From the NCBI RefSeq assembly GCF_027942295.1, contig NZ_CP101416.1:806001-870000 (forward strand): a stretch of DNA of 64,000 nucleotides, written 5' to 3'. Positions 395 to 58,251 of the stretch are shown here, piece after piece (the stretch's first letter is position 1; every line of letters begins with the position of its first letter). The notes under the pieces are model-generated. The model was not told the DNA's origin, did not search any database, and saw nothing but the letters and a program-made list of their open reading frames with translations. The position numbers and the translations under genes are program-made. The stretch comes from Pseudanabaena sp. Chao 1811 (GTDB lineage: Bacteria > Cyanobacteriota > Cyanobacteriia > Pseudanabaenales > Pseudanabaenaceae).

Positions 395-675
395 ATAAAG
401 TAAAAAATATTGATGAAATAACCACCTTTATTTGATCTATTTTATCGTAGATAAAATGATAATCAACTTAGTTTTCCGATCATCCCTCAGAAAATTCGAC
501 ATTAATAATCTTGCGACTTTTTGAGCATTGTCTTTAGCGAGATTGTTTATGATAGTTAAGTTAGAAAGGCGATCGCTTTCAATGAACTTTGAGGATTAGT
601 ACAAGTAGCGAGCGCAAAGCCCTATCTGTACGAAGGATCGCTGTCAAAAATTGCTTTCAGTCTGGAGTAAAAATC

Positions 676-1263
676 ATGAAGCAAAAGCTACAAACAATTA
701 GTGGAGAGCTAAAAACTCAATTTAAGATTTTAGGAAGTTGCGTTATAGTCTTTTGGTCTGTAGTTATTGTTAATGAATTATTGTTTAGTGGCAGGCTTAA
801 TGCCTTAGGGATTCTGCCTCATCACTTGATCGGTTTGCGAGGTATTCTGTTTGCTCCATTTTTACATGGAGGCTTTTATCATGTTGCCGCTAATACACTG
901 CCCTTTATTGTTTTAGGGTGGTTTGTGATGTTACGAAACATCAGTGACTTTTATTTTGTATCTTTTATATCAGCGTTAATCGGGGGGCTAGGAACATGGC
1001 TAGTAGGTAGACCTGATTCTGTACACATTGGTGCGAGTGGCGTAATTTTTGGATATTTTGGATATTTGCTATTTCGTGGTTACTTTGAGCGAAGTTTTGT
1101 GGCGATCGCAATTTCCGTGATAGTCGCCATGATCTATGGCGGATTAGTTTGGGGGGTATTACCAACACGAGCCTACATTTCTTGGGAAGGACATTTGTTT
1201 GGGCTTATTGGTGGAATTATTGCCGCTAAGATGCTATCTGAGAGTAAGAATAATAGACTTTAG
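676..1263 (+). CDS. Rhomboid-family intramembrane serine protease
   Basis: A 195-residue polytopic membrane protein. Rhomboids cleave transmembrane substrates inside the membrane with a Ser-His dyad. The Ser sits in IGASGVIFG (Ser121) and the His in WEGHLFGLIGG (His173). HGGFYHVAANT supplies the His/His/Asn residues (H64, H69, N73) that form the oxyanion region in GlpG-type enzymes. It therefore looks catalytically competent. I chose ATG 676 because GGAG lies 9 bases upstream; a longer TTG-started frame from 589 has no such site. A close paralogue follows directly downstream on the same strand, so the pair arose by tandem duplication. The substrate is unknown. Confidence 0.85.
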   Translation: MKQKLQTISGELKTQFKILGSCVIVFWSVVIVNELLFSGRLNALGILPHHLIGLRGILFAPFLHGGFYHVAANTLPFIVLGWFVMLRNISDFYFVSFISALIGGLGTWLVGRPDSVHIGASGVIFGYFGYLLFRGYFERSFVAIAISVIVAMIYGGLVWGVLPTRAYISWEGHLFGLIGGIIAAKMLSESKNNRL

Positions 1264-52213: not shown

Positions 52214-55200
52214 TTACTTTTGCCTTGGAGGGATGCCACAAGCCTGTCTGTCTTCATCACTGGCGTTGGGGTTATTAACGAGATAGTCATGGAGCCACGC
52301 GCAACCCTTCGCCATCAAGTCATCAAAATCTAAATTCCATAATTTGACGGTGTTGTCTAAACTGGTGGATATAATCGCCTTGCCATCGGGACTAAAGACT
52401 ACGCTCAAGACACTATCGCTATGCCCTTTGAAGGTTTGGATTTCTTTTCCTTCCAGATTCCACAATTTGACGGTGCTGTCATAACTACCAGAGGCGATCG
52501 TCTTGCCATCGGGACTAAAGGCGACGCTCCAGACACTATCGCTATGCCCTTTGAAGGTTTGGATTTCTTTTCCTTCCAGATTCCACAATTTGACGGAGTT
52601 GTCAGAATTGCCAGTGGCGATCGTCTTGCCATCGGGACTAAAGGCGACGCTCCAGACAATATTGCTATGTCCTTTGAAGATTTGGATTTCTTTTCCTTCC
52701 AGATTCCACAATTTGACGATTTTGTCCAAACTGCCAATGGTGATCGTCTTGCCATCAGGACTAAAGGCGACGCTAGTGATCCAGCCACTATGCCCTTTCA
52801 AGGTTTGGATTTCTTTTCCTTCCAGATTCCACAATTTGACGGTGTTGTCATAACTGCCAGAGGCGATTGTCTTGCCATCGGGACTAAAGGCTACGCTACT
52901 GACCCTAGCGCTATGCCCTTTGAAGGTTTGGATTTCTTTTCCTTCCAGATTCCACAATTTGACGGTGTTGTCCCCACTGCCAGTCGCGATCGTCTTGCCA
53001 TCGGGACTAAAGGCTACGCTACTGATAGTATCGCTATGCCCTTTGAAGGTTTGGATTTCTTTTCCTTCCAGATTCCACAATTTCACGGTGTTGTCCCAAC
53101 TTCCAGAGGCGATCGTCTTGCCATCGGGACTAAAGGCTACGCTATTGACAACATTGCTATGCCCTTTGAAGGTTTGGATTTCTCTTCCTTCCAGAGACCA
53201 CAATTTCACGGTGTTGTCCCAACTTCCAGAGGCGATCATCTTTCCATCGGGACTAAAGGTCACGCTATAGACAGAATCACCATGCCCTTTCAGAGCTTGA
53301 AGTTCTTTCCCATCCAGAGACCACAATTTTACGGTTCTGTCCCAACTGGCGGAGGCGATCATCTTTCCATCGGGACTAAAGGCTACGCTCAAGACACTAT
53401 CGCTATGCCCTCTCAAGGTTTGGATTTCTTTTCCTTCCAGATTCCACAATTTAACGGTGCTGTCATAACTGCCAGAAGCGATCGTCTTACCATCGGGACT
53501 AAAGACTACGCTATTGACACTAGCGCTATGCCCTTTGAAGGTTTGGATTTCTTTTCCTTCCAGATTCCACAATTTGACGGTGTTGTCCCCACTGCCAGTC
53601 GCGATCGTCTTGCCATCGGGACTAAAGACTACGCTATTGACACTAGCGCTATGCCCTTTGAAGGTTTGGATTTCTTTTCCTTCCAGATTCCATAATTTCA
53701 CGGTTTTGTCAGAACTTCCAGTGGTGATCGTCTTGCCATCGGGACTAAAGGCTACGCTACTGACCCTAGCGCTATGCCCTTTGAAGGTTTGGATTTCTTT
53801 TCCTTCCAGATTCCATAATTTCACGGTTTTGTCATTACTGACCGTCGCAATCATCTTTCCATCGGGACTAAAGGCTACGCTACTGATAGTATCGCTATGC
53901 CCTTTGAAGGTTTGGATTTCTTTTCCTTCCAGATTCCACAATTTGACGGTTTTGTCCCAACTTCCAGTCGCGATCGTCTTGCCATCGGGACTAAAGGCTA
54001 CGCTACTGACAGTAGAGCTATGGGCAATCATTCGATTTTTTTCTTGAACTCCATAGACAAATCGCAACAAATTTGCCGTCACCAGCATTTGCGTATTTGC
54101 CTTATCGCGTTTAGCGACTTCAAGACCTAAGCCCTTGAGTTTATGCCCTGCAACAACCGCCTTCAACAAAGCCTCAAATCCCTGCTCCCCCTGAAAATCT
54201 GCCTTCGCATCTAGGCTCTTGATTCTAACATCAGCAAGTTTAATATCATCATTGGCATTCTTCACCGCCGCCGCCGCCTTTGCCTGTTCCGCTAAGGCAA
54301 CCTTCACCTTCCCTTCCGCATCCGCAATCTTCGCTTGGGCATCCGCCACCTTTTCCGCCGAGTCCTGCGCCACCTGCGCCGCCTCAGCCTTAGCTGACTC
54401 TAGATTCTTCTTCGCCTCCTCAACCTTCAGATCCGCCTCTTTCTTATTCTCATTTGCATCCCTCACCTTTTGAGCAGCATCCCTCTTTTCTTTTTCTGCA
54501 TTCTTCCCAATCTGCTCAGCCTCTTGCTTTGCCGAAACTACTTGACGATCAGCATCCTTCACTTTAGTCTCAGCCTCTTTCTGAGTATCAGCAACCTTCA
54601 CATTTGACTCATTCACCGATCGCGTAGCCCACACCCCCGCCGCCGCCGCCAACAACAACATCAGCCCCAACACCACCGAACCCACCTTAACGCGATCTCT
54701 CGCCTTCCGTTCCGCCTCAACCAAAATCGCATTTGCCTCTTCCGTCGCCGCCAACCGTTGACTTGTCTCTAACCTCTCAAGCTCCCGACTCTCCCGCAAG
54801 AACTGCTCATCTATATCACTAAGCTTCTTCCCTCGCGCCCAAACCTCCGCTTCCTCCAACGCCTGCCCCCGCAACAGAAACCCCTGATTCTGCTCCTCCT
54901 CCGCATCCCGCCAAGCCCGAAACGCCGAAGCATAAAACTCTGGACGCAAATCCGCTAACTGACCCTCCACCCATTTGTTATCAAATACAGCCGCATAGAT
55001 CGGATTATAGGAAATCAACTTCCCATCCCGTCGCACCACTAACCCCGTCAACCGTAACCGCGATCGCTCCTCACTGCGATCATCTTCCAACTCCCCATCC
55101 GCCAATACCTGCTGATAGCAACCCAACATTCGCCCCCGCAACTTCTCTTCCACACTAATCACGCGATCCCTAATAGTCGTCAAATGTGGCGGCGCATCCT

Positions 55201-56059
55201 GCGATTCCCAATTCGTGACAATCCGCTCCTGTACTAGAGTCTCAACCCAGCCCGCAATATTCTCAGGTGGGGCAATTCCTGCTAACTCCTTCTCCATCAT
55301 TCCCAACAATCGCTGAATTAGAAAAGGCTGTCCCCCCGTCCACTTCACCGCCTCAGCTAGATAATCCTGAGGATTCGCCACCTTACTCGCCAACCCCTGC
55401 ATCAAAGGCAAAGCCTCCGTTAGCGTAAACCCCGCCATCTCCACCGCATAGCCAATATTAAACGCTGAAGTATTATGACTCTGGATCAAGTCCGTCGGTG
55501 TCGCCACCCCCAAAAAGGAAAAAGTGAGGCGATTATATTCAGTCTTAGTCGGACGATCTTCAAAAAATGACCTCACCAAACCAAAGAAATCATCCATCCC
55601 AAACTTGAGACTCAATAGGCGATCTATTTCCTCCACAAAAATCACAATCGGCGCATCAATCTCCTGCAACACGACTGTTTCAATAAATTCTGCAAAGCGC
55701 TGCACAGGCGACAGCAATTCCCGTTCCCTAATCCAACTCCGCAAATCAAACTTATTCTTTAAATCCAGATCCCCCACCAAACTCCGAATCGCGCTGGCAT
55801 ACCACTGCTCGCAAGTCACCTCCACCCCAATCTTCTGTGGATCGATCGTCGCGCAGACAATCCCCTCTGCTTGCAACTTATGCGTCACCCGCACCCGCAA
55901 ACTCGACTTCCCCATCTGCCGACAGTTAAACACATAACAATATTTACGCTCTTTGAGTAAGTCGTAATAGTCGCGATCGCATTGTCGCTCCACATAACTA
56001 GGCGCATCCGCAGGGAGACTACCACCAACTTGATAATTGAAAGAGCTTGCATTAGTCAT
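52214..56059 (-). CDS. AAA_35 ATPase - TM - coiled coil - 14x WD40 protein
   Basis: A 1281-residue protein. The N-terminal AAA_35-like ATPase domain (about 1-380) has NCRQMGKSS (45-53, P-loop) and VIFVEEIDRLL (139-149, Walker B). A transmembrane helix lies at about 457-480, then a long Lys/Ala/Glu coiled coil (about 485-640), then fourteen WD40 repeats (about 676-1240) of exactly 41 residues, such as VAFSPDGKTIASGSWDNTVK, enough for two 7-bladed propellers. The repeats are nearly identical, so the array is homogenised. A short tail (LMAKGCAWLHDYLVNNP) ends it. Overlaps the small upstream gene by 8 bases; a CHAT-ATPase gene precedes. A sensor/scaffold role is inferred. Confidence 0.88.
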   Translation of the reverse strand: MTNASSFNYQVGGSLPADAPSYVERQCDRDYYDLLKERKYCYVFNCRQMGKSSLRVRVTHKLQAEGIVCATIDPQKIGVEVTCEQWYASAIRSLVGDLDLKNKFDLRSWIRERELLSPVQRFAEFIETVVLQEIDAPIVIFVEEIDRLLSLKFGMDDFFGLVRSFFEDRPTKTEYNRLTFSFLGVATPTDLIQSHNTSAFNIGYAVEMAGFTLTEALPLMQGLASKVANPQDYLAEAVKWTGGQPFLIQRLLGMMEKELAGIAPPENIAGWVETLVQERIVTNWESQDAPPHLTTIRDRVISVEEKLRGRMLGCYQQVLADGELEDDRSEERSRLRLTGLVVRRDGKLISYNPIYAAVFDNKWVEGQLADLRPEFYASAFRAWRDAEEEQNQGFLLRGQALEEAEVWARGKKLSDIDEQFLRESRELERLETSQRLAATEEANAILVEAERKARDRVKVGSVVLGLMLLLAAAAGVWATRSVNESNVKVADTQKEAETKVKDADRQVVSAKQEAEQIGKNAEKEKRDAAQKVRDANENKKEADLKVEEAKKNLESAKAEAAQVAQDSAEKVADAQAKIADAEGKVKVALAEQAKAAAAVKNANDDIKLADVRIKSLDAKADFQGEQGFEALLKAVVAGHKLKGLGLEVAKRDKANTQMLVTANLLRFVYGVQEKNRMIAHSSTVSSVAFSPDGKTIATGSWDKTVKLWNLEGKEIQTFKGHSDTISSVAFSPDGKMIATVSNDKTVKLWNLEGKEIQTFKGHSARVSSVAFSPDGKTITTGSSDKTVKLWNLEGKEIQTFKGHSASVNSVVFSPDGKTIATGSGDNTVKLWNLEGKEIQTFKGHSASVNSVVFSPDGKTIASGSYDSTVKLWNLEGKEIQTLRGHSDSVLSVAFSPDGKMIASASWDRTVKLWSLDGKELQALKGHGDSVYSVTFSPDGKMIASGSWDNTVKLWSLEGREIQTFKGHSNVVNSVAFSPDGKTIASGSWDNTVKLWNLEGKEIQTFKGHSDTISSVAFSPDGKTIATGSGDNTVKLWNLEGKEIQTFKGHSARVSSVAFSPDGKTIASGSYDNTVKLWNLEGKEIQTLKGHSGWITSVAFSPDGKTITIGSLDKIVKLWNLEGKEIQIFKGHSNIVWSVAFSPDGKTIATGNSDNSVKLWNLEGKEIQTFKGHSDSVWSVAFSPDGKTIASGSYDSTVKLWNLEGKEIQTFKGHSDSVLSVVFSPDGKAIISTSLDNTVKLWNLDFDDLMAKGCAWLHDYLVNNPNASDEDRQACGIPPRQK
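52336..54030. repeat. Tandem array of 123-base WD40-encoding units
   Basis: Fourteen direct units of 123 bases (41 codons) lie within the WD40 gene. Large parts, e.g. the codons for KLWNLEGKEIQTFKGHS, are almost identical between units at the DNA level, with differences in the loop positions. This points to recent gene conversion or unequal crossing-over. Confidence 0.9.
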
Positions 56060-56456
56060 AATGGCGGGTGATTTCCTGTTGAAATTCCTCGATTACAGAA
56101 TTTAAAGACATTTGCCGAAGTTTCGCAAGTTCGGTCAAATTTTCTAATCTTGTAACATCGATCGCTTCAATATGTTCTCCTAATTTAATTAACTCTTGAT
56201 ATTCCTCATCCGTCAAAGTGTTCTCTTGACGTTTACCAATAAGCAAGTCATAGCGTTCTTGGAGATGAGTAGGAACACATTGAGTAATTTGTTGCAATAG
56301 TAGAGATTGATCGTTTGGCAAGCTCAGAATTTTGCGCTTAGTTTGAACCCTAATAGCTTGGGCAATTAATTGTTCTAGCTCAGCCGAATCTAGCTGCTCT
56401 ACAGTTTGAATAAGCTGCTCAAAGGGAAGTTGAGTTTGAACGGTAATTTGAGTCAT
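56052..56456 (-). CDS. Small helical protein between two ATPase genes
   Basis: A 134-residue, soluble, mostly helical protein (FEQLIQTVEQLDSAELEQLI, LRQMSLNSVIEEFQQEITRHYD). I recognise no domain with certainty. It ends inside the start of the AAA-WD40 gene (8-base overlap), so translation is likely coupled, and it follows the CHAT-ATPase by 50 bases. The position between them suggests a third subunit of one system, perhaps an adaptor; this is inference. Confidence 0.65.
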   Translation of the reverse strand: MTQITVQTQLPFEQLIQTVEQLDSAELEQLIAQAIRVQTKRKILSLPNDQSLLLQQITQCVPTHLQERYDLLIGKRQENTLTDEEYQELIKLGEHIEAIDVTRLENLTELAKLRQMSLNSVIEEFQQEITRHYD

Positions 56457-56506
56457 AGTTTTACTTTTGAGGACTATGCTAATTTCAGTTTAGTGCTATT
56501 TCTAAT

Positions 56507-58108
56507 CTATAACCGATCGCAAAAATAACGACGATATAATTCATTACGAATAATCACACCTGTTTCTGTGCGTAATATTAAACCCATTCCATCTAATTTT
56601 GACGTAGTCGCCAGATCAAAACGGATTGGTTGCGGTGAATTAACCAGCGATCGCAAAACTTCCGTAAGATGAGCATCTCTTTCCACCTTCGCTAAACGAG
56701 TGGTGAGATGTTTCCCAAATAGCCCTACTTCTGTCGAGGCACTTTGAATGATTTGCTCAAGGGAATTTGCGCCACTAGCTAAATTATAGAAAGCGAGTCG
56801 TATTAGATAGGGATGTCCACCAATCAATTCAGTGATAGGTTCTATTTGAGATGTTGATAAACCATGCAGTTCTGCAAGCTCATCAACTTGTGCAGTTGTG
56901 AATTCATCCAAATCAATGGGTGTACCGACATTAAATGGAGATTGATTAATATCCTTAGTTGTAAAAGATTCCATTGAATAGGCAAGCACTAGCCGCAACT
57001 TGCCCCATGTGCGATCGTGTTTGCCCTGCTCATGCCAACCGCGTAGCAAACCACAAAAATCCACCTCGATCGCCTCATGCAGAAAGATACGATCCAAATT
57101 TTCGATCGCAATCACCAACGGGCGATCGTCATCATCATTCAATAAATATCTTTCAAAAAATTCCTCACAGTTACCATTTGCGCCAAACATCTCATCCCAA
57201 TCATCGGTCGGTTTCGCCTTCACCCCAAAATCGCGTCCAATCACCGCACAAAACCACTGCAAGAATCGATCCATATTTTCAAAAAAGCGGCGATCGCACT
57301 TTTGCAAATCTAGCCATGTGGTGCGATTACCCAGCCGCCTAGCCTCTTCTAAGACTCGTACCAATAGCGAAGACTTACCCATGCGGTCAGGGGATTTTAA
57401 GCGCAGTAGGGCATGGGGCATGGCGATCGCTTTAAAGCATTGCTCCTGTTGAGGCGATCGCGGAATATAAAATTGTGAGCCAATCCTTACTGCCCCCTCA
57501 GGTTCCTCGATCACCAGATTCACCTTCGGTAATACCTGACTTTCATAACTGCGTTCTAACAGCACAGGCGTTTGGGCTTCAGGAATATTTTTTAAGGCAA
57601 TGAGATTTTTACCTAAATCAAAGGCATCCTTAACTGATTTCCCTTCAAACAAAGCCCCATAAAAGCCCTTAGCAAATTCGATCGCCGCCACATCCCCGAT
57701 CGCCTGATTCATCCCCAACACATAAGGCACATAGCGAGCGATCGCCTCCGCCTGCACCTGCGAGAAACAAGCATTCAACACCACGCAATCGATGCCATTT
57801 TGCAAAATCCGAAATAATTCTGCTAAAGCCTCCGTCGGCGCAAGTTGCCAATCCCCCACATCATTTTCTAAAACCAGACCATTTTCGGCTGCCCCATGTC
57901 CTGAGAAATGCACAACGCGAGGAACTTCCTGAAGCAAAATTGGCTGTAGGTCATCAATACGTACTGCGCCCTTAGCAACAATGGCAAAGCGATCGCGCAA
58001 ACTCGACTTCTGACAACATTCCTCAATTTCTCGAAATTCTGCCTCTACCCTCAGGCGATCAGTATTTGATGGATTTGCAGACAGCAGCAGTACTTTTTTC
58101 TTATCCAC
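56507..58108 (-). CDS. CHAT (caspase-like) protease fused to an AAA_35-like ATPase
   Basis: A 533-residue protein. Residues about 1-190 form a CHAT peptidase domain: catalytic His71 in VVHFSGHG and Cys114 in VVLNACFSQ, with the family's LVLENDVGDW-like strand and YGALFEGKSV helix. From about 210 an AAA_35-like/STAND-type ATPase follows: SPDRMGKSSLLVRV (239-252) as a P-loop, whose first Gly is Ser, and VIAIENLDRIF as Walker B. The C-terminus (about 400-533) is a winged-helix-like region. It is the first gene of the run with the small protein and AAA-WD40 genes. Proteolytic activity under ATPase control is inferred from family knowledge. Confidence 0.87.
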   Translation of the reverse strand: MDKKKVLLLSANPSNTDRLRVEAEFREIEECCQKSSLRDRFAIVAKGAVRIDDLQPILLQEVPRVVHFSGHGAAENGLVLENDVGDWQLAPTEALAELFRILQNGIDCVVLNACFSQVQAEAIARYVPYVLGMNQAIGDVAAIEFAKGFYGALFEGKSVKDAFDLGKNLIALKNIPEAQTPVLLERSYESQVLPKVNLVIEEPEGAVRIGSQFYIPRSPQQEQCFKAIAMPHALLRLKSPDRMGKSSLLVRVLEEARRLGNRTTWLDLQKCDRRFFENMDRFLQWFCAVIGRDFGVKAKPTDDWDEMFGANGNCEEFFERYLLNDDDDRPLVIAIENLDRIFLHEAIEVDFCGLLRGWHEQGKHDRTWGKLRLVLAYSMESFTTKDINQSPFNVGTPIDLDEFTTAQVDELAELHGLSTSQIEPITELIGGHPYLIRLAFYNLASGANSLEQIIQSASTEVGLFGKHLTTRLAKVERDAHLTEVLRSLVNSPQPIRFDLATTSKLDGMGLILRTETGVIIRNELYRRYFCDRL

Positions 58109-58201
58109 TTGTTTAGCTATGGTTGCGAGCGAGGTTTTGGGGAGGCAATAAGGTAATTTTAATATCCCAGCTAGCGATTCAATAAATAATATCTAAAAAA
58201 A

Positions 58202-58228
58202 AAGAGACGGTGCTATGCACCGTCTCTT
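58202..58228. terminator. Terminator between mraY and the CHAT gene
   Basis: AAGAGACGGTGC-TAT-GCACCGTCTCTT with an A-run on the left, ends mraY transcription (leftward). Confidence 0.72.
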
Positions 58229-58251
58229 CAGGAAACATAAATTCAAAGAAT

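What the first reader, a model, noticed from the sequence alone, without database searches (positions are those of the whole stretch)
52214..58108. CHAT-ATPase / small protein / ATPase-WD40 three-gene module
A CHAT protease fused to an AAA_35-like ATPase (58108-56507), a 134-residue protein and an AAA_35-TM-coiled-coil-14xWD40 protein lie head to tail, with 50 bases and an 8-base overlap between them. The family context is caspase-like peptidases switched by NTPases (STAND-like systems); here two ATPases, one membrane-anchored and carrying two propellers, are paired with one protease. A signalling or cell-death/defence system with a membrane sensor is a reasonable but unproven reading.
Basis: partly seen in the sequence, partly recalled or inferred. 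Interest (0 to 1): 0.72.

Follow-up and report, generated by a model that had tools for sequence, protein, structure and literature searches.

The report
Split immune-type receptor in a cyanobacterium
Two neighbouring genes in a filamentous cyanobacterium appear to make the two halves of a receptor built like animal and plant immune receptors, one half carrying a caspase-like protease and the other a fast-changing sensor; it is a new version of a system already described in related bacteria.

Summary
In this Pseudanabaena two genes form the unit. A (56507-58108) is a CHAT protease on a STAND/NLR-like ATPase. B (52214-56059) is a second such ATPase, one predicted membrane helix, a coiled coil and 14 WD40 blades. 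A-then-B pairs recur in cyanobacteria with exchangeable outputs on A (CHAT, kinase, TIR, cyclase, trypsin) and inputs on B (WD40, TPR, CHASE2, GAF/PAS, FHA); partners are co-inherited. At this locus in six relatives the CHAT domain and both ATPases stay 90-95% identical while the sensor differs or is lost. In the window's blades, four codons spaced like the selected codons of fungal HNWD receptors vary almost only by amino-acid change. The small gene is the remnant of an antitoxin-like/HNH-nuclease cassette, whole in six of seven orthologous loci; a 420-bp deletion made the 8-base overlap. The pair works like, and largely fits, the published WRAP operon (STAND-propeller gene coupled to TIR-STAND), with CHAT in place of TIR. 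Most likely B senses and releases A's protease, perhaps in immunity. Function is untested.

The parts
56507..58108 (-). Gene A: CHAT protease fused to STAND-like ATPase, 533 aa, GTG start
   Evidence: ORF; Pfam CHAT and AAA_35; AlphaFold model pLDDT 85.2, pTM 0.62
57539..58108 (-). CHAT domain (residues 1-190); His71 (57896-57898) and Cys114 (57767-57769)
   Evidence: His71 and Cys114 invariant in 27 of 27 aligned CHAT-A proteins; fold match to SAVED-CHAT 8tl0, Z 20.0, 185 residues, 3.0 A
56510..57511 (-). AAA_35 ATPase of A (residues 200-533): Walker A SPDRMGKS, Walker B reads IENLD (second acid is Asn)
   Evidence: Pfam; motifs; fold matches 2qen Z 20.9, CED-4 Z 18.5, RPP1 Z 18.0, ORC2 Z 17.4
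56052..56456 (-). Small antitoxin-like gene, remnant of an antitoxin/HNH cassette whose nuclease gene is deleted here
   Evidence: Alignment with five relatives, 420-bp deletion; cassette elsewhere
56065..56085 (-). Deletion scar: end of the small gene joined to the last bases of the lost HNH gene
   Evidence: DNA alignment; distance from small-gene start to B start is 397 bases here and 817 in L020
52214..56059 (-). Gene B: STAND-like ATPase, membrane helix, coiled coil, 14 WD40 blades, 1281 aa
   Evidence: ORF; Pfam
54950..56059 (-). AAA_35 ATPase of B (about residues 1-370): Walker A NCRQMGKS, Walker B VEEID
   Evidence: model of residues 1-460 pLDDT 89.3, pTM 0.79; fold matches 2fna Z 20.2, ORC2 17.5, RPP1 17.5, CED-4 16.7, Apaf-1 15.9
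54629..54685 (-). Predicted membrane helix of B (residues 459-477); five K/R in the 15 residues before it, two in the 15 after
   Evidence: Kyte-Doolittle scan, mean 2.21 over 19 residues
54056..54622 (-). Coiled-coil-like stretch of B (about residues 480-668)
   Evidence: read from the translation; no coiled-coil program was run
52331..54052 (-). 14 WD40 blades (residues 670-1243), 41-residue unit, expected to form two seven-bladed propellers as in WRAP
   Evidence: phmmer to 2ymu chain A, E 3.9e-214, window 670-1242 on chain 5-577; repeat analysis
58201..58229 (-). Terminator-like stem before gene A, at the end of the mraY-like gene; a consensus match only
   Evidence: 5 terminator-like sites found, 6.0 expected in shuffles, so weak as evidence

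Best explanation
A and B are the two halves of a split STAND/NLR-type receptor. B is the sensor half: an ATPase on the inner face of a membrane, a membrane helix, and two hypervariable seven-bladed WD40 propellers that bind a ligand. A is the output half: a like ATPase carrying a CHAT cysteine protease held inactive. Ligand binding by B drives nucleotide-dependent assembly of B with A, which brings CHAT domains together and switches on cleavage of a cellular protein, giving cell death or dormancy, most plausibly against phage or another invader. Shown here: domain content, fold class, conserved order and co-inheritance of A and B, intact CHAT residues, exchange of outputs and inputs, fast change of the sensor. 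Inferred: direct A-B contact, nucleotide switching, propeller side of the membrane, protease substrate, immune role.
For: Order A then B: 46 of 57 strong A hits in 29 genomes and 36 of 40 CHAT-A genes in 79 named loci, 25 of the 36 within 170 bases. Co-inheritance: correlation of A and B tree distances 0.85 over 68 pairs; 0 of 5000 shuffles of partners inside genomes reach it (highest 0.79). NLR-type cores for both ATPases. CHAT His/Cys invariant in 27 of 27. Exchange of outputs: kinase, CHAT, TIR, cyclase, trypsin on A, at least 14 changes of output class on the A tree; the own-genome kinase-A/WD40-type B pair L007 and the cyclase-A/TPR-GUN4-Macro B pair L028 keep 87% and 89% identity in the A and B ATPases. 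Sensor turnover at the orthologous locus: CHAT 91-94%, A ATPase 90-93%, B ATPase 91-95%, sensor 18-84% where alignable and absent in one strain. Window blades: four codons with pN 0.51 and pS 0.15 against 0.06 and 0.21 in the rest. Published inference of an innate-immunity role for the WRAP operon (PMC9218822 section 3).
Against: No activity, expression or phage data. No defence neighbours in the window and a stable chromosomal site, unlike mobile defence islands. Some B proteins carry CHASE2 or GAF/PAS sensors, which suit environmental signalling. The folds match ORC/Cdc6 about as well as NLRs (Z 17.4-17.5), so the fold does not by itself say NLR. A lacks the second Walker B acid, so nucleotide hydrolysis by A is doubtful. 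pN exceeds pS at the four codons in five of nine repeat sets examined, not in the other four.
Confidence: 0.55

Rival explanations
1. The same split-ATPase relay, but for ordinary signal transduction (environmental or cell-state sensing) and regulated proteolysis, not immunity.
For: Other B proteins end in CHASE2, GAF/PAS, FHA or TPR-GUN4-Macro, and other A proteins start with kinases or cyclases; stable, syntenic locus beside housekeeping genes; kinase-type pairs present in nearly all of the same-genus genomes searched.
Against: Rapid sensor turnover at this locus and amino-acid change confined largely to the presumed binding positions of the blades look like a recognition arms race; TIR, CHAT and trypsin outputs are typical of conflict systems (PMC8195603 and PMC7159879, passages seen).
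Confidence: 0.33
2. One reading: a three-gene module in which the 134-residue protein is a working part, for example the protease substrate.
For: It lies between A and B here and, with an HNH gene, in six of seven orthologous Pseudanabaena loci.
Against: Absent from the orthologous locus L104 and from the CHAT-A/B pairs outside this Pseudanabaena group; the family sits directly upstream of 23 of 31 HNH genes examined in 30 loci, most of them elsewhere (the profile was widened once with its own first hits); its end here is a deletion scar.
Confidence: 0.05
3. The pair is decaying: the locus no longer works in this strain.
For: The HNH gene is lost here; in Phormidium tenue FACHB-1050 (L107) gene A is split in frame and in L105 B is cut short.
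Against: A and B are both open and full length here, with CHAT residues and Walker A motifs kept.
Confidence: 0.07

Closest known systems
WRAP operon (Npun_R6612 of Nostoc punctiforme; Dunin-Horkawicz et al. 2014, not held, known here only through PMC9218822 section 3 and passages of PMC6805158)
   Same: STAND ATPase with 14 highly alike C-terminal WD40 blades, gene coupled to a second STAND ATPase with an N-terminal effector; the window's blades align end to end with the solved WRAP propellers 2ymu.
   Different: Effector is CHAT, without TIR; blades share about 83% DNA identity rather than near identity. The ATPase sequence of Npun_R6612 was not compared.
Fungal HNWD NLR receptors (Podospora het-d/het-e/het-r)
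   Same: NLR core plus highly alike WD40 blades with amino-acid change concentrated at four positions; their codons 7, 9, 25, 27 (PMC2873952, passages) have the same spacing as 0, 2, 18, 20 here.
   Different: One polypeptide with a HET effector; exchange of blades between genes is known there, while other blade arrays of this genome are at most 75% identical.
SAVED-CHAT (8tl0)
   Same: CHAT fold and catalytic pair; Z 20.0 over 185 residues.
   Different: Its CHAT is fused to a SAVED domain, here to an ATPase; no SAVED domain was reported by the Pfam scan of A.
Apaf-1/CED-4/plant NLRs
   Same: Fold of the ATPase core in A and B; Apaf-1 also carries WD40 blades.
   Different: Here two ATPase proteins share the work, and B has a predicted membrane helix.
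MNS clade 'Npun2340/2341 family' of STAND NTPases (named in PMC8195603)
   Same: Cyanobacterial STAND family named after two adjacent genes; that this is AAA_35 is my recall, not tested.
   Different: Not compared.

Membership tests
WRAP-type paired STAND operon | C-terminal array of 14 highly similar WD40 blades | tested here: met
   14 units of 41 aa, DNA identity 0.83 on average; 2ymu match over all blades
WRAP-type paired STAND operon | STAND-type ATPase N-terminal to the blades | tested here: met
   Model of residues 1-460 against PDB: 2fna Z 20.2, RPP1 17.5, CED-4 16.7; ORC2 17.5 ties
WRAP-type paired STAND operon | Adjacent same-strand gene for a second STAND ATPase with an N-terminal effector | tested here: met
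   transcription as one unit was not testable
WRAP-type paired STAND operon | Effector is TIR, sometimes with a caspase domain | tested here: not met
   CHAT and AAA_35 only on A. TIR occurs on A genes of other pairs. I therefore call this a variant, not a plain member
WRAP-type paired STAND operon | ATPase sequences of the same family as Npun_R6612 and its partner | not tested
   Npun_R6612 was not fetched
CHAT proteases | CHAT fold with catalytic His and Cys | tested here: met
   Pfam 33.7 bits over cut-off 24; His71, Cys114 in 27 of 27; 8tl0 Z 20.0
CHAT proteases | Protease activity | not testable with these tools
   needs a bench assay
STAND NTPases | Walker A and Walker B with two acids | tested here: inconclusive
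   Walker A kept in both; Walker B is EN in A and EE in B, so B fits and A lacks the second acid
HNWD-type receptors | Amino-acid diversification at blade codons 7, 9, 25, 27 | tested here: met
   Same spacing in the window; these four rank 1-4 of 41 codons for nonsynonymous differences. The register against the fungal unit rests on spacing and recall, not on an alignment
HNWD-type receptors | HET effector, NACHT and WD40 on one chain | tested here: not met
   Two chains, CHAT effector, AAA_35
HNWD-type receptors | Blade exchange between genes of one genome | tested here: inconclusive
   Other loci of this genome at most 75% identical over long stretches

The most novel reading that the evidence does not exclude
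A membrane-spanning split NLR: B holds hypervariable propellers outside the cytoplasmic membrane and its ATPase inside, and signals across the membrane to A, whose own ATPase is hydrolysis-poor (Walker B Asn) and serves as a nucleotide-locked adaptor that fires CHAT. The A-B ATPase pair would then be a general bacterial receptor chassis, as open to new inputs and outputs as two-component systems, and the fungal and bacterial receptors would have reached the same four variable blade positions independently.
Probability: 0.25. Interest if true: 0.78.

Novelty: new variant of a known kind. Interest (0 to 1): 0.52.

Why it matters
If right, cyanobacteria split the NLR plan over two proteins, so any sensor can be coupled to any effector by swapping one end of one gene. 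The orthologous loci of Pseudanabaena then form a natural experiment: protease and switch constant, sensor changing. That makes the search for what such propellers recognise directly testable, and offers an independent bacterial case to set beside fungal HNWD receptors. It also warns that small genes inside such operons may be passing nuclease or toxin-antitoxin cassettes.

Tried and rejected
Three-gene module: rejected as above.

Independent covariation of Walker B motifs: B 'EE' occurs in 19 of 68 pairs, always with A ending in Asn, which looked like a coupled change. On the trees EE arises once and Asn two or three times, so it is one clade, not repeated covariation; I do not use it as evidence. 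Exceptions are two DN/DE and one NH/DE pair.

Mobile locus: I first thought the locus had moved, because relatives have nth and psaL-like genes next to A. A blastn comparison shows the same outer flanks, so the site is shared and nth/psaL lie elsewhere in this genome.

Exchange of blades with other genes of the genome: no near-identical copies elsewhere.

Positive selection as a general claim: pN exceeds pS at the four codons in the window, L127, L131, L020 and L022, but not in L027, L029, L061 and L032; codon 20 is not among the top eight in L131. The four positions were picked from the window's own repeats before they were compared with the fungal ones. The measure compares repeats in one gene and is descriptive.

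Cargo between A and B: 11 of 36 CHAT-A/B pairs have 714-2715 bases between the genes, with HSDR_N-like, Uma2, small/HNH or Fic genes (Pfam for one or two examples of each; the rest by eye). The HSDR_N-like family has 97 matches in 20 genomes (18 with any), of which six lie in A-B gaps. Whether this is function or a tolerated insertion place is open.

PADLOC gave only generic CHAT hits for A and a HEAT-ARM label on the WD40 region; NCBIfam gave no useful name. Promoter-like sites were below the shuffle mean. Paper searches (open-licence library only) showed me no paper on a CHAT version of the WRAP operon; the 2014 paper itself could not be read, so it may be there.

Dropped rows: two of 70 pairs for short domains; L107 left out because gene A is frameshifted; L103 and L106 sensors are cut by an assembly gap or contig end. 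Trees were of the quick kind.
Full report
Check. The window lies in a 4.73-Mb single-contig genome.

The unit is a pair. The own genome holds six AAA_35 domains in three adjacent A-B pairs: the window, a kinase-A pair with a WD40-type B (L007) and another (L008). In 29 genomes 25 have AAA_35; 46 of 57 strong hits are followed by a B-type hit on the same strand. Among 79 named loci found with gene A, 36 of 40 CHAT-A genes have B downstream, 25 of them within 170 bases or overlapping; of the four others, L122 has B upstream and L126, L129 and L147 have none in the stretch held. In a draw of 146 genomes of the phylum, 49 have AAA_35 at E 1e-15 or better, all in the window's class.

The partners travel together. 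Distances on the A and B trees correlate at 0.85 over 68 pairs; 2000 free shuffles reach at most 0.29, and 5000 shuffles inside genomes at most 0.79. Output classes need at least 14 changes on the A tree, against 29 in shuffles, so they cluster but have been exchanged repeatedly. Outputs seen on A are Ser/Thr kinase (by similarity), CHAT, adenylate/guanylate cyclase, TIR and trypsin. Inputs on B are WD40, TPR with GUN4 and Macro, CHASE2, GAF/PAS, FHA and CHAT. One close pair of pairs, L007 and L028, has both ends different while the ATPases keep 87% and 89% identity.

Folds. The model of A (pLDDT 85) gives CHAT like SAVED-CHAT (Z 20.0) and an ATPase like archaeal 2qen (20.9), CED-4 (18.5) and RPP1 (18.0); that of B residues 1-460 (pLDDT 89) like 2fna (20.2), RPP1 (17.5), CED-4 (16.7) and Apaf-1 (15.9). 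ORC2 scores 17.4-17.5 with both, so the fold places them in the wider STAND/ORC group. CHAT His71 and Cys114 are invariant in 27 of 27. Walker A is kept in both; Walker B reads IENLD in A and VEEID in B, a feature of one clade.

The membrane helix. A hydrophobic segment after the ATPase is found in 20 of 42 B proteins of the first set and 22 of 34 B ORFs, some of them fragments, of the second. Of these 42, 31 have more K/R before than after it, 7 are tied and 4 have fewer. By the positive-inside rule this puts the sensor outside the membrane; CHASE2 in the same place on other B proteins fits, CHASE2 being known as an extracytoplasmic sensor (recall). GAF/PAS B of L037 shows no such helix.

The sensor changes fast. 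Against six orthologous loci the CHAT domain is 91-94%, A ATPase 90-93% and B ATPase 91-95% identical. The sensor is 38% (L102), 73% over 147 residues (L103, gap), 18% and not WD40-like by eye (L104), absent (L105), 84% over 304 residues (L106, contig end) and 65% over 338 (L108). In the window's 14 blades the nonsynonymous differences concentrate at unit codons 18, 2, 0, 20 and 40; the first four give pN 0.51 and pS 0.15, the rest 0.06 and 0.21 (13 full blades). Codons 7, 9, 25 and 27 of the Podospora HNWD unit, reported under positive selection at the top of the propeller (PMC2873952, passages), have the same spacing. Hu et al. 2017 already note variable hotspot sites in highly repetitive WD40 proteins (PMC5587647, passages).

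The small gene. In the five relatives aligned, the small gene is followed by a 141-residue HNH gene that runs into B; the window lacks 420 bases there, so the small protein ends in a tail read from the last HNH bases in another frame. Of seven orthologous named loci six have the small/HNH cassette and L104 has neither gene. HNH relatives number 143 in 20 of 20 genomes. In 30 loci, 23 of 31 HNH ORFs have a small-family ORF directly upstream, three another small ORF and five none. The own genome has a second small gene beside an HNH gene with an internal stop. Antitoxin-like is my reading of the layout.

Known or new. Pereira and Lupas (PMC9218822, section 3) describe WRAP, 14 near-identical WD40 blades on a STAND ATPase whose gene is coupled to a TIR-STAND gene, conserved in cyanobacteria, sometimes with a caspase domain, and infer innate immunity, citing a 2014 paper that I could not read. 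The window's blades match the solved WRAP structure end to end. This locus is therefore a variant of a known kind. What I add is the CHAT output, the wider table of inputs and outputs, the test of co-inheritance, the turnover of the sensor at a fixed locus, the codon pattern, the likely membrane topology and the deletion that explains the small gene.

Verdict. Most likely a sensor-effector relay of two NLR-like ATPases ending in a caspase-like protease (0.55); immunity is the best guess for its use, ordinary signalling the main rival (0.33).

Noticed in passing
G000:C1:1877520-1878324 (L071, L080): Second small/HNH cassette of the genome; the HNH frame holds a TGA stop.
   Followed up: partly
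L107:9001-10609: Gene A of Phormidium tenue FACHB-1050 is split in two frames; HSDR_N-like, Uma2 and small/HNH genes lie between it and B.
   Followed up: partly
L104, L105, L107, L108, L112, L124, L131 (between A and B): The gap between A and B repeatedly holds nuclease-like or toxin-antitoxin-like genes, an HSDR_N-like family most often; L118 has a Fic gene and the kinase pair of L109 an XisH gene.
   Followed up: partly
L055:6983-8641, L060:4134-6119: AAA_35 proteins with a C-terminal GGDEF domain and no B gene directly downstream.
   Followed up: no
L030:6757-9942: A B-type protein that ends in a CHAT domain, so CHAT can sit on either partner.
   Followed up: no
L051:50-5956: A 1968-residue ORF with a B-type ATPase near its C-terminal end.
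   Followed up: no
G000 genome: 18 CHAT matches in the own genome, one of them in the window's gene A; several lie close together (616-627 kb, 1629-1637 kb, 1844-1870 kb).
   Followed up: no
window 52421-53695 +: Long open frames opposite the WD40 array are a by-product of the repeats, not likely genes.
   Followed up: no
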